The notes beneath the pieces are model-generated. The model was not told the DNA's origin and searched no databases. It saw only the letters and a program-made list of their open reading frames with translations. Of a stretch of DNA of 64,000 nucleotides, positions 1,167 through 60,623 are shown one piece after another. The first letter of the stretch is position 1. Each line of letters starts with the position of its first letter. The translations under genes and the position numbers were made by a program. This DNA is from Falsiruegeria litorea R37 (GTDB lineage Bacteria; Pseudomonadota; Alphaproteobacteria; Rhodobacterales; Rhodobacteraceae), in contig NZ_FWFO01000002.1 of NCBI RefSeq assembly GCF_900172225.1, positions 434,001 through 498,000 of the forward strand, read 5' to 3'.

Positions 1167-1282
1167 GCGTCCTGCGGACGGCGGGGGGCGTGGCACCTTG
1201 TGGGCAAAGCCCACAAGGTGCCACGCCCAACAGGAGGAGAGGTCCCGTCAGGGACCGCGACGACTGGCGGGAGCGCCCCCGG
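1167..1282. repeat. Composite palindromic repeat, copy A
   Basis: Begins with the leader GCGTCCTGCGGACGGC shared with copy F, then a perfect 20-bp hairpin (1186-1205 with 1209-1228) with an AAA loop. The common module follows: GCCCAACAGGAGG, a small hairpin GGTCCC/GGGACC (1241-1256), then CGACGACTGGCGGGAG. The GGCGGGAG end stops 10 bases before the yciB stop codon. Confidence 0.75.
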
Positions 1283-1291
1283 AGTCGTTTC

Positions 1292-1906
1292 TCAGGCGTC
1301 TTCGTCCTTATCGGGCTCGATCAGATACTGTTGCAACAGGCTGAACTGCATCATCAGGAACGCCATCAGCGCGATGGGAAAGCCAAAGGTCTCGATCTTG
1401 ACCCACAAGTCGGTCGACATGGTGCGCCAGACCAGCTCGTTGGCCACCGCGAGCAGGACAAAGGCGGCGCAGAGGCGTTTGGTCAGGATCATCCAACCTT
1501 CGTCGCGCATGGGCAGCATTTCGTTCAGGATGAACGCCAAATAACTGCGCCCCTGCAACAGGCCGATGCCCAGGATGGCCGAGAAGCAGCCATAAACCAG
1601 GGTGGTTTTCATCTTGAAGAAACGCTCGTCGTTGAACCAGGCGGTCAACCCGCCAAAAAAGATCACCATGAAGGCCGTGAAAATCTGCATCCGGCTGAGC
1701 TTGCCCGTGAGGAACCACAGCACCCCCATGGCAGCCAAAAGGATGGGAACAAAAATGATCGTGGCCACGATGAAGCCCGAGTATTCGGTCCCCGCGAACA
1801 CATAGCTGTCGTCGCGGATCCGCAGGTAGATGAGGAAGAACGCCACGGTCGGGCCGAGCTCAAGCACCTGTTTCAGGATCGGGTTGATTTCCATTTTTTC
1901 GGCCAT
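1292..1906 (-). CDS. yciB: Septation protein A family inner-membrane protein YciB
   Basis: 204 residues with about five hydrophobic membrane segments, the usual size and layout of the YciB/IspZ family. The family is linked to cell-envelope and septation functions in other bacteria; its chemistry is unknown. Recognisable features are the early LELGPTVAFFLIY segment, the GKLSRMQIFTA loop and the conserved motif around FNDERFFKMKTTLVYG. It lies 17 bases downstream of the EamA transporter, and with ftsY upstream the three minus-strand genes probably form one transcription unit. Copy A of the repeat family sits just past its stop. Confidence 0.88.
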   Translation of the reverse strand: MAEKMEINPILKQVLELGPTVAFFLIYLRIRDDSYVFAGTEYSGFIVATIIFVPILLAAMGVLWFLTGKLSRMQIFTAFMVIFFGGLTAWFNDERFFKMKTTLVYGCFSAILGIGLLQGRSYLAFILNEMLPMRDEGWMILTKRLCAAFVLLAVANELVWRTMSTDLWVKIETFGFPIALMAFLMMQFSLLQQYLIEPDKDEDA

Positions 1907-1923
1907 GCCAGACTTTCCGTTCT

Positions 1924-2826
1924 TTATCCGCCCATCTCAACTATCACGGCCCCGAGCGCAATCAACGCCATAAGTGCAATACGACGGGGGCCGACGGTTT
2001 CTTTCAGCACCAGCCAACCGATGAGGGCGGCAAACACGGTCGAGGTTTCGCGCAGGACAGCGGCCTCACCCACCTTGTCCAGTCGTGTGGCCAGCATGAC
2101 CGAGCCAAAAGACATGAAGGCCACCAGGCCACCAATCACGCCGCGCAGCATCAGCGGGGCGGGGGCCGGGCGGTCTGGCATCTTGCGCCAGCGTGCGTAG
2201 GCGATGAAGGGAAAGGTTGCCCCGTCGATCATGAAAAACCACGCCAAAAAGGTAAACGGGTCGGCGGTGGCGCGGATGCCATAGGCGTCATAGGTCGTAT
2301 AAAGCGCCACAAAGAACCCGGTGAACAGGGCCAGCCCCAAGGCGGCCTTCAGGGTGGCGCGGTCGGTTTCGAGGTTCCGCAAATTATACAGCGCCAGCCC
2401 AAAAATTCCGGCCAACAGGACCGCGACACCCATCCATTGTGTGAGTGTAAAGGTCTCGCCAAACAGCAGATAGGCGCCAATCACCGTGAACAGCGGCCCG
2501 GTGCCGCGCACCACCGGATAGACCACCGTATAGGCCCCGCGGGTGTAGGCCATGGATTGCAGCACCTTATAGGCGATGTGGATGGCCCAGACGGTGGCAA
2601 AGATCACCCACATATGCGGCTCGGGCCTGGGCACCACAAATAAGGCAAAAGGCGCGGCCATGAGGCAGTACGAGAAATCAATCGCCCCGCGTGTCAGCCA
2701 GGGATCATGGCGACCCTTTTGGAGCGCGCCAAAGACCGCGTGCAAAAATGCCGCAAGCAGGGCCAAGGCCAGGGCCATCTGATGCCCGGCTTCGGTGCCT
2801 TCCAGAGAGATCAGCCAGTCGCTCAC
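1924..2826 (-). CDS. EamA/DMT-family membrane transporter
   Basis: 300 residues with about ten predicted membrane helices in two similar halves, the EamA (DUF6) duplication of the drug/metabolite transporter superfamily. The second half ends with the typical GWLVLKETVGPRRIALMALI segment. The substrate cannot be read from sequence; members export amino acids, metabolites or drugs. It is the middle gene of ftsY-eamA-yciB on the minus strand. A strong hairpin (2854-2874) lies between it and ftsY and may modulate read-through. Confidence 0.82.
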   Translation of the reverse strand: MSDWLISLEGTEAGHQMALALALLAAFLHAVFGALQKGRHDPWLTRGAIDFSYCLMAAPFALFVVPRPEPHMWVIFATVWAIHIAYKVLQSMAYTRGAYTVVYPVVRGTGPLFTVIGAYLLFGETFTLTQWMGVAVLLAGIFGLALYNLRNLETDRATLKAALGLALFTGFFVALYTTYDAYGIRATADPFTFLAWFFMIDGATFPFIAYARWRKMPDRPAPAPLMLRGVIGGLVAFMSFGSVMLATRLDKVGEAAVLRETSTVFAALIGWLVLKETVGPRRIALMALIALGAVIVEMGG

Positions 2827-2853
2827 AGTGAGAGGTCTTTCTAGGTGGAGAGG

Positions 2854-59469: not shown

Positions 59470-59602
59470 GTCAGCGGTCCTTTGCAGAATTGAACTGAGG
59501 CTGTTCTATCCGGGCGTTGCCGGATTGGCGAGAGGGTTGGGGTTGAGGATTTGTGGGAATTGTGAAGAATAATTCGTCAACAACGTGAATCTTGAGAAAA
59601 TC

Positions 59603-60058
59603 ATGCTTGATGATATCGATCGCCGTATCTTGCGGCACTTTCAGGCCGACCCAAGCCTGAGCACGGCTGACTTGGCGGACCTGTGCCGTATCACCTCCGG
59701 TGTCTGCTGGCGGAGGATCGAAAAAATGCAAGCGACCGGGATTATCCAGGGCCAGGAGGCGGTGATCGACTGGGCCATCTTGGGCTATGCGGTCGAGGTG
59801 TCCTTGCGCGTGACATTGGACAAGACGCAGGCGCGCGCTTTTGACGAATTCACGGCAGCGGCGCGCCAGGTGGCCGAGGTGATCGAGATTCAGACTTTCC
59901 TGGGGCGGGTCGATGTGCGCCTTTCGGTGATCGCACGAGACATGGCGCATTATCAGCAGCTCTACCGTGATCGTATCCTGACCCTGCCACATATCGCCGA
60001 TATCGAGGCCTTGATGCACATCGCGCGCGTCAAAAGTGCCGAGGGGCTGCCGTTGTGA
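59603..60058 (+). CDS. Lrp/AsnC-family regulator, first of a pair
   Basis: 151 residues. The helix-turn-helix (MLDDIDRRILRHFQADPSLS, then ITSGVCWRRIEKMQATGII) and the effector (RAM) domain are both present. The ATG at 59603 has GAGA six bases upstream. It is divergent from ilvC, so control of branched-chain synthesis is possible. Its stop overlaps the GTG of the next Lrp gene (GTGA). Confidence 0.88.
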   Translation: MLDDIDRRILRHFQADPSLSTADLADLCRITSGVCWRRIEKMQATGIIQGQEAVIDWAILGYAVEVSLRVTLDKTQARAFDEFTAAARQVAEVIEIQTFLGRVDVRLSVIARDMAHYQQLYRDRILTLPHIADIEALMHIARVKSAEGLPL

Positions 60059-60513
60059 TCGAACTGGACGACATGGACCGCAACATTCTGAGGGCGCTGG
60101 TGCAGGACGCGAGCCTGAGCGCAGGCGCTTTGGGGCGTCGGTTCGGCTTGTCCCAGCCTGCCACATGGCGGCGAATCAAGCGGTTGGAGCAGGCTGGTGT
60201 GATCAAAGGGCGACGGCTCCGGCTCAATGCCGAGGCGCTCGGGTTTGGGGTGACGGTGTTTCTGGGTGTCAAACTGGCACGAAAGGGACAGGTGAGCCTG
60301 GAGGATTTCGAACGCGCCGTCAGCGCCATCCCCGAGGTGCAGACGGTCGAGCACGTGCTTGGGCTCTATGACTACCGCTTGCGCGTGGTTGCGCGGGACC
60401 TTTCGGATTTCGAGCGTGTTCTGCGCCGCCGGATCATGACCTTGCCGGGGGCAGGGGACGTCGAGGCCAATGTCCTTCTCAGCGAAGAGCGACGGCCAGG
60501 ACCAATCGGCTGA
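60055..60513 (+). CDS. Lrp/AsnC-family regulator, second of a pair
   Basis: 152 residues from a GTG. The HTH reads MDRNILRALVQDASLSAGAL, then GLSQPATWRRIKRLEQAGVI; the RAM domain includes VEHVLGLYDYRLRVVARDL. It resembles its upstream neighbour moderately, suggesting duplication and divergence; the two could form mixed oligomers. The HTH is intact, which argues against the siroheme-decarboxylase proteins that share this fold. Confidence 0.88.
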   Translation: MIELDDMDRNILRALVQDASLSAGALGRRFGLSQPATWRRIKRLEQAGVIKGRRLRLNAEALGFGVTVFLGVKLARKGQVSLEDFERAVSAIPEVQTVEHVLGLYDYRLRVVARDLSDFERVLRRRIMTLPGAGDVEANVLLSEERRPGPIG

Positions 60514-60521
60514 CCCTGATT

Positions 60522-60623
60522 TCAGGCGCGCCCGCAGGCGAGGGCGCAGCCCGAGCCTGCCGGGCCCAACGGGAGGAGATGTCCCGGAAGGGAGATCGAC
60601 GACGGGCGGGAGTGCCCCCCCGG
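60522..60623. repeat. Composite palindromic repeat, copy H
   Basis: GGCGCGCCCGCAGGCGAGGG and a GC-rich stem, then GGGCCCAACGGGAGG, a small stem TCCC/GGGA, and CGACGACGGGCGGGAG. It fills the gap between two convergent genes: nine bases past the second lrp stop and 17 bases before the hutC stop. Confidence 0.75.

What the first reader, a model, noticed from the sequence alone, without database searches (positions are those of the whole stretch)
1167..60623. Eight-copy family of palindromic repeats with termini facing gene stop codons
Copies at 1167-1282, 6429-6663, 11431-11514, 16993-17225, 38095-38176, 42145-42213, 56615-56872 and 60522-60623 share words (GGCCCAACGGGAGG, CGACGACGGGCGGGAG, CTCCCGCGCCCGAG, GGGCCGGGCGCCG). 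All lie within about 35 bases of a gene 3' end and five lie between convergent genes. In most, a CTCCCGC-type end points at the stop codon. The small central hairpin differs between copies but is always self-complementary, as if structure and not sequence is selected. Function could be bidirectional termination, mRNA 3' protection, or a non-autonomous mobile unit mobilised by a REP-associated transposase.
Basis: partly seen in the sequence, partly recalled or inferred. Interest (0 to 1): 0.7.

Follow-up and report, generated by a model that had tools for sequence, protein, structure and literature searches.

The report
Paired hairpin repeats at gene ends
A marine roseobacter-group bacterium carries over a hundred copies of an apparently undescribed family of folded DNA repeats just after the ends of genes, mostly where two genes run head-on into each other; they resemble the known REP repeats, have stayed in place while related species diverged, and may act as two-way barriers at transcript ends.

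Summary
The host is congeneric with Tropicibacter Alg240-R139 and R16_0 (Rhodobacteraceae). GGCCCAACGGGAGG occurs exactly 97 times in its genome, reversed control 0. In the stretches held I found 117 right-hand modules: none overlaps a called gene, 74 lie between convergent genes, 1 between divergent genes. In 800 kb of congener DNA fetched for synteny, not for elements, 37 of 77 convergent gaps of at least 60 bp carry one, 13 of 213 tandem, 0 of 113 divergent.

The unit is a strand-specific hairpin module with conserved boxes and a covarying stem, single or in outward-facing inverted pairs. Where flanks could be compared, sites stay occupied, with module swaps and no clean empty site. No Y1/RAYT transposase was found in the host or three congeners.

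Best reading: a new REP/BIME-like family, apparently immobile here, kept as a two-way 3'-end barrier (function inferred). REPs beside convergent stops are published (PMC3733652), so the kind is known. New are the family, its anatomy, its retention, and a puzzle: the folding strand is kept even where neither flanking gene transcribes it.

The parts
1148..1282 (+). Copy 1: alternative left head (LE2, GCGTCCTGCGGACGG), 20-bp perfect hairpin 1186-1228, right module core 1224-1273; between two minus-strand genes, stop codon of 1292-1906 about 10 bases away
   Evidence: orthologues in three congeners
6429..6663 (+). Copy 2: left module (LE1, from 6435), spacer, right module 6611-6660; between convergent genes
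   Evidence: orthologues (G001 shows only the right module)
11431..11523 (-). Copy 3: single right module 11438-11483 with its foot hairpin; convergent genes; an element also stands beside the homologous gene in Tropicimonas sediminicola (L171)
16993..17225 (+). Copy 4: left module (LE1, from 16999), spacer, right module 17170-17218; convergent genes
38095..38189 (-). Copy 5: single right module 38101-38149 with foot hairpin; convergent genes
42126..42213 (+). Copy 6: LE2 head and 23-bp perfect hairpin 42165-42213, no right module; convergent genes; three congeners hold an element with the right module at this site
56615..56872 (-). Copy 7: right module 56625-56674, spacer, left module ending at 56863; between two minus-strand genes
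60522..60623 (+). Copy 8: single right module 60563-60612 with foot hairpin; convergent genes; G002 and G003 hold an LE2-type element at this site

Best explanation
A new REP/BIME-like repeat family of Rhodobacteraceae. SHOWN: the unit is a hairpin module with conserved boxes (GGCCCAAC-GGGAGG, hairpin with mostly GNNA loop, GACGACGGGCGGGAG) whose core is selected to fold on one strand, the one ending outward in GCGGGAG. It stands alone or is paired with an inverted second module (LE1) or another head (LE2) around a spacer. Copies sit a few tens of bases after stop codons, mostly between convergent genes, and stay at orthologous places across the genus where this could be compared. INFERRED: the family spread long ago, perhaps through a single-strand (HuH/Y1) transposase as REPs do, and in this genus no longer moves. 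It is kept because a stable structure at the junction of two head-on genes gives both transcripts a 3' end: it stops or traps readthrough and blocks 3'-to-5' exonucleases. Exchange of modules between copies (recombination) would explain the swaps.
For: Placement: 116 of 117 modules lie downstream of at least one gene, 86 of these 116 within 35 bases of the nearest stop. Congener stretches: 37/77 convergent, 13/213 tandem, 0/113 divergent gaps (Fisher convergent vs tandem 6e-15; the three stretches are partly orthologous, so not independent; G001 alone 18/41 vs 6/93, p 8e-7). Structure: covariation; G.T:A.C 142:12 over the eight stem pairs of the right module and 91:4 in the left module. At orthologous sites: 14 double Watson-Crick changes, 24 single changes between G.T and Watson-Crick, 3 between A.C and Watson-Crick; 17 further changes involve a non-pair or A.C. 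Retention: host to congeners 40 of 44 comparisons (27 distinct of 121 elements; the others lacked two collinear flanks) with the right module, the other 4 with a left module or remnant; congener to congener 56 of 56, at about 80% DNA identity. Right-module orthologues resemble each other more than paralogues do (0.872 vs 0.77-0.81). Other genera: 25 of 41 intergenic copies convergent.
Against: No transcript data, so termination or protection is not shown; no U-tract follows the modules I read. Canonical terminators are only weakly depleted at element-bearing convergent ends (19/222 vs 22/134, p = 0.03), not clearly in the congener stretches (10/74 vs 12/80), and are more frequent beside elements in tandem gaps (12/56 vs 36/325). 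A 3'-UTR role would predict an orientation bias in tandem contexts; there is none (21 vs 21), and the core fold is kept equally where the neighbours transcribe the other strand. The foot hairpin stretch, unlike the core, folds better on the opposite strand (83 vs 22 of 108). Left modules within G001 are more alike (0.898, 9 copies) than left-module orthologues (0.866, 14 pairs), which points to homogenisation rather than plain vertical descent. The partner of GTAG REPs (RAYT) is missing here.
Confidence: 0.55

Rival explanations
1. Selfish REP-like relics without host function: copies persist because insertion elsewhere is harmful, and homogeneity reflects past transposition or gene conversion.
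For: Inverted pairs of modules as in REPINs; folding strand indifferent to neighbour orientation; patchy occurrence (31 of 246 family genomes with a match); near-identical LE2 paralogues (125 pairs over 90% identical) and left modules more alike within G001 than between orthologues; a Y1 gene between two likely modules in G018.
Against: Boxes stay nearly identical at orthologous sites while flanks and spacers are scrambled; no clean empty site among the comparisons; compensatory changes at orthologous sites.
Confidence: 0.2
2. DNA-level site between convergent genes: gyrase or nucleoid-protein target that relieves supercoils, as proposed for E. coli REPs (passage in PMC3733652).
For: Strong convergent preference and equal use of both orientations in tandem gaps.
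Against: Single-strand-specific pairing (G.T, not A.C, on one strand) is not expected for a duplex or cruciform target, where both strands must fold.
Confidence: 0.1
3. Ordinary intrinsic bidirectional terminators that happen to share sequence.
For: Location near both stop codons of convergent genes (both within 60 bases in 46 of 74); GC-rich stems.
Against: No U-tract; conserved boxes outside the stems; some sites also carry a canonical terminator just before the element (L079, L086).
Confidence: 0.08
4. Non-autonomous unit presently mobilised by a RAYT or other Y1 transposase.
For: REPIN-like inverted pairs; 4 of 16 element-bearing genomes tested have a Y1 gene, 0 of 17 others (G004, counted among the others, has one R1 match).
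Against: No Y1_Tnp match in the host or three congeners (draft genomes); no clean empty site; no LE1 paralogue pair over 90% identical.
Confidence: 0.05

Closest known systems
REP/BIME and REPIN repeats (GTAG superfamily) with RAYT transposases
   Same: Extragenic palindromes, strand-specific hairpin with non-Watson-Crick positions, singles and inverted pairs, downstream of genes and between convergent genes (PMC3733652, PMC8266576, PMC8049555: passages seen).
   Different: No GTAG tag (GTAG in 1 of 139 right cores and 6 of 67 left modules on the folding strand); larger modules with a foot hairpin and runs of G.A pairs; pairs are mostly of two different modules; no RAYT found in the genus.
CGTC-tagged REPs of Alphaproteobacteria (Di Nocera et al. 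2013, PMC3733652; abstract and passages seen)
   Same: CGTC next to the stem on the strand opposite to the folding one (138 of 139), 8-bp stem, 4-base loop, mostly inverted dimers, no dedicated transposase; in the published example most copies between convergent ORFs lie under 20 bp from both.
   Different: First two stem pairs are not A/T (A/T in 4 of 139); no CCA tail seen; longer conserved boxes. The words Rhodobacter, Ruegeria, Silicibacter, Roseobacter, Rhodobacterales, Dinoroseobacter, Paracoccus and Jannaschia are not in its main text (its figures and extra files were not seen).
Mosaic intergenic repeats of rhizobia (RIME, ABC; recalled, not compared)
   Same: Alphaproteobacterial intergenic elements built of exchangeable palindromic blocks.
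   Different: Not tested; no sequence comparison was made.
attC sites of integrons (features recalled)
   Same: A single strand folds; variable hairpin; GCCCAAC fits the inverse core RYYYAAC.
   Different: No paired GTTRRRY core seen in the right module; dispersed at single gene ends, not in cassette arrays.

Membership tests
REP/BIME-like repeats (general kind) | Many-copy extragenic palindromes outside genes | tested here: met
   117 modules, 0 overlapping a called gene by more than 25 bases
REP/BIME-like repeats (general kind) | Location downstream of genes, between convergent or tandem ORFs | tested here: met
   74 convergent, 42 tandem, 1 divergent
REP/BIME-like repeats (general kind) | Singles and inverted dimers, strand-specific hairpin | tested here: met
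   54 with LE1, 23 with LE2, 40 single; core hairpins fold better on the outward strand, 115 vs 7 of 133 and 47 vs 2 of 49; the foot hairpin leans the other way
GTAG REP / RAYT REPtron | GTAG tetranucleotide beside the stem | tested here: not met
   GTAG anywhere in 1 of 139 right cores and 6 of 67 left modules
GTAG REP / RAYT REPtron | Cognate Y1 transposase in the genome | tested here: not met
   0 matches to PF01797 in host and three congeners; control rings in E. coli
CGTC REP superfamily | CGTC tag beside an 8-9 bp stem with 4-5 base loop | tested here: met
   GACG (= CGTC on the other strand) beside the 8-bp stem in 138 of 139; the set held only cores with 24-base spacers
CGTC REP superfamily | A/T in the first two stem pairs and CCA tail | tested here: not met
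   A/T pairs in 4 of 139; tail not seen in alignment A1
REPIN as mobile element | Transposition or polymorphic empty sites | tested here: not met
   No clean empty site among the orthologous places compared; within-species polymorphism not tested
Bidirectional transcription terminator | RNA 3' ends at the element | not testable with these tools
   No transcript data
Rfam families | Match to any of 4227 models | tested here: not met
   Window: only SAM_alpha, elsewhere, over gathering score. Copies 2 and 4 at E<=10: best is the lncRNA model HTT-AS1_3, E 0.07, 20.5 bits against a gathering score of 70; other copies not run at that threshold

The most novel reading that the evidence does not exclude
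The elements are host-maintained punctuation read by an unknown trans-acting factor that binds the folded single strand of each module. Box sequences, the runs of G.A pairs and GNNA loops are its recognition features, and a large share of convergent gene junctions in this genus (37 of 77 longer gaps, 37 of 129 of all adjacent convergent pairs, in the stretches read) is marked by it. The factor must act on a strand made irrespective of the flanking genes' direction (single-stranded DNA, or pervasive antisense RNA that the module stops from entering a gene's 3' end), because the folding strand is kept even where neither neighbour transcribes it.
Probability: 0.2. Interest if true: 0.75.

Novelty: new variant of a known kind. 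Interest (0 to 1): 0.5.

Why it matters
REP-like repeats are old, common and mostly unexplained. Here is a family without an identified mobiliser in its genus, stable at the orthologous sites that could be compared, present in about half of the longer convergent gaps in the stretches read, with compensatory changes that favour one strand. That separates persistence from present-day mobility and makes the old question, selfish relic or host device, directly testable in marine bacteria that can be grown.

Tried and rejected
Flank covariation: GGGGG before and CCCCC after LE1-RE pairs looked like covarying arms, but pairing does not clearly exceed what column composition gives (54 pairs); dropped. 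Target-site duplication: could not be defined, since no clean empty site was found. Replication-strand bias: orientation agrees with local GC skew 34 times and disagrees 35 (one contig; the signs along that contig do run in blocks, runs test z = -2.2, unexplained). Plasmid and phage collections: no match to copy 4; viral contigs: 0 exact matches. attC: no GTT core seen. RNA rather than DNA from the loops: GNYA 87, GNRA 38, other 14 of 139, so the loops do not argue for RNA. Literature: eight searches of the held library; no listed title or abstract describes such a family in Rhodobacteraceae; three papers were opened, in passages only; the library lacks most subscription journals and preprints.

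Dropped rows and limits: right cores whose central stretch is not 24 bases (57 of 169) were left out of alignment A1. One of 52 congener-tile matches is a false match inside a gene, so 25 of the 26 in G001 stand. Copy counts are capped at 24 scored candidates a genome, with stricter filters. Gene calls are from my own codon-usage script, not an annotation. The 108 G000 loci were chosen around element words, so context frequencies in them are biased; the congener tiles were chosen for synteny with the window. In the other-genera count I used 44 named loci; L156 and the loci whose titles were not shown were left out. In the cross-genus site test 26 of 93 genes had a C-terminal homologue in held DNA; of the ten sites with a homologue in the G001 tile only one (L171) has an element there.
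Full report
CHECK OF THE OBSERVATION. The shared words are real. GGCCCAACGGGAGG occurs 97 times exactly in the 4.69-Mb host genome, 0 times reversed; CGACGACGGGCGGGAG 84 times at up to one mismatch, control 0; CTCCCGCGCCCGAGC 50 times at up to one mismatch, control 2. I read 6 kb or more around these places (108 stretches) plus the window, and found 117 right-hand modules with at most two substitutions a box, at 117 distinct positions.

ANATOMY. The right module (RE) reads GGCCCAAC-GGGAGG-hairpin-GACGACGGGCGGGAG, preceded by a foot hairpin of changing sequence. 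54 of 117 have an inverted left module (LE1, CTCCCGCGCCCGAGC...CGGCCTTGGGCC, up to 3 mismatches) within 260 bases; 23 have another head (LE2); 40 stand alone. Spacers between LE1 and RE differ (mean identity 0.49 over sampled pairs of 48 spacers), though the shortest ones, 25-27 bases, are up to 92% alike; no two whole LE1 elements exceed 90%, whereas 125 pairs of LE2 elements do. LE1 and RE share their layout: each, read outward, ends in GCGGGAG. Some loci show a left module only (L053, L060, L086).

STRUCTURE. On 139 distinct 50-base cores from host, congeners and named contigs (A1; 24-base spacers only), 96.0% of cells pair, 219 cells are doubly changed against 70 +/- 20 in shuffles, and sliding the partner breaks it. 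Column 10-41 switches G-C to A-T in 6; 11-40 is G.A in 133 and 12-39 A.G in 138; 14-37/15-36 are G.A/A.G in 107, become fully Watson-Crick in 8, and G.A/C.A in 13. Loops are G..A in 125 of 139 (GNYA 87, GNRA 38). Over the eight stem pairs: 908 Watson-Crick, 142 G.T, 12 A.C, 50 other. The central hairpin folds better on the outward strand in 115 of 133 distinct sequences, worse in 7. The left arm folds better on the opposite strand, 47 against 2 of 49, which is its own outward strand; there G.T:A.C is 91:4 over 67 sequences. Against a simple picture: the foot-hairpin stretch folds better on the strand opposite to the right core (83 vs 22 of 108), and whole LE1 elements show no clear preference (23 vs 31 of 54).

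PLACE. 0 of 117 overlap a called gene by more than 25 bases; 74 convergent, 42 tandem (21 in each orientation), 1 divergent; nearest stop within 35 bases in 86 of 116. In 800 kb of congener DNA taken for synteny, not for elements: 37 of 77 convergent gaps of 60 bp or more, 13 of 213 tandem, 0 of 113 divergent; of all adjacent convergent pairs 37 of 129. The element itself lengthens gaps, and the three stretches are partly orthologous; G001 alone gives 18 of 41, 6 of 93 and 0 of 54. In other genera 25 of 41 intergenic copies are convergent, 13 tandem, 3 divergent (2 of 43 pattern matches fell in called genes).

HISTORY. The congener DNA that matches window 600-20000 is mostly 79-87% identical. 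G000 elements with both flanks collinear: right module present in 40 of 44 comparisons (27 distinct elements); the other four hold a left module (L081, L084) or a remnant (L079, L083). With a wider gap limit it is 41 of 45, all 41 in the same orientation, and the same four. Reverse: 38 of 43; of the five others three are the window's 42145 derivative, one a left module only (L086), and one starts from a false match in a gene. Between congeners 56 of 56. These sets overlap and are not independent. Boxes stay nearly identical while flanks and spacers are scrambled, and types change at a site: LE1 in three species and single in G001 at 6429; single in G000 and LE2 in two at 60522; a 128-base LE1 form in G001 at three of these loci. 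Mean identity of right-module orthologues is 0.872 against 0.77-0.81 for paralogues; left-module orthologues 0.866 against 0.82-0.83 in three genomes but 0.898 within G001, so some homogenisation within G001 is likely. Some sites are shared with other genera: the gene ending at window 11522 has the element beside its homologue in Tropicimonas sediminicola at 44% protein identity, and a Ruegeria marina gene pair matches L112 on both sides. Held G000 loci are biased to element sites; of ten sites with a homologue in the G001 tile only the Tropicimonas one has an element there.

DISTRIBUTION. Of 61 genomes near the host 8 match the exact pattern, 0 of the 24 outside the family. By model R1, 31 of 246 genomes of the family match.

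MOBILISER. Y1_Tnp: 0 in host and three congeners; 4 of 16 element-bearing genomes and 0 of 17 others (G004, among the others, has one R1 match). In G018 a short Y1 gene (I call it IS200-type from the domain and its size) lies between a weak R1 match (25 bits, E 0.0047) and a second stretch that I recognise by eye as a right module in L280, and beside a weaker match (17.6 bits, E 0.12) in L281. The stretches fetched around Y1 genes of G010, G241 and G214 (two of its three) and the third G018 place have no R1 match at E<=1.

MECHANISM. Location argues for a two-way 3'-end element. Against a simple 3'-UTR role: tandem orientation is 21 to 21, and the folding strand is as well kept where both neighbours run against it (G.T:A.C 16:0, 13 copies) as where they run with it (17:1, 15 copies) or converge (59:3, 47 copies). 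At one such site (window 1167) two congeners share a double compensated change and the third shows a G.T intermediate. So the selected molecule is either made regardless of neighbour direction, or the design is inherited from a mobile or converting past. Canonical terminators at convergent ends: 19/222 with, 22/134 without element (p = 0.03), 10/74 against 12/80 in the congener tiles; in tandem gaps they are commoner beside elements, 12/56 against 36/325. This is inconclusive.

KNOWN KIND. Di Nocera et al. 2013 (PMC3733652; abstract and passages seen) describe GTAG and CGTC REPs, the latter mainly alphaproteobacterial and without dedicated transposase, lying downstream of ORFs and between convergent ones, in two species mostly under 20 bp from both, and note GT pairing in stems. 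The present family shares the CGTC tag on the non-folding strand (138 of 139), stem and loop length, but not the A/T first pairs. TnpA-REP acts on one strand of single-stranded REPs, with a bulge needed in E. coli (PMC8266576, passages). REPIN populations are said to persist for millions of years (PMC8049555, abstract, passages). I therefore file it as a new variant of the REP-like kind, not as a GTAG REP; whether it belongs to the CGTC superfamily stays open.

Noticed in passing
L280 2870-3585 (G018, another genus); L281 2604-3393: Short Y1 transposase gene lying between two stretches that look like a left and a right module of this family (L280) or beside a left one (L281); a possible mobiliser, or an IS that targets these elements.
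   Followed up: partly
window 15624-15701: SAM_alpha riboswitch (RF00521, 57.3 bits).
   Followed up: no
window 1186-1228 and 42165-42213: Perfect 20- and 23-bp hairpins with a three-base loop after the GCGTCCTGCGGACGG head; stem sequences differ between the two, and orthologues of the first stay self-complementary.
   Followed up: partly
L079 about 2770-2805, L086 about 2930-2960: Canonical U-tract terminators directly before an element, so some sites carry both.
   Followed up: partly
L067 around 3000-3190; L078 around 3000: Two right modules facing outward as an RE-RE pair instead of LE1-RE; the L078 pair also appears in G001.
   Followed up: no
L279 2928-2948, L280 2930-2950: GCCTCCGGCGGGGTATATTT next to the Y1 gene ends; recalled as a common 3'-end word in Rhodobacterales, perhaps another such repeat family.
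   Followed up: no
G000 contig C1: Element orientation runs in blocks along the contig (26 runs against 34.9 expected, z = -2.2) without following GC skew.
   Followed up: no
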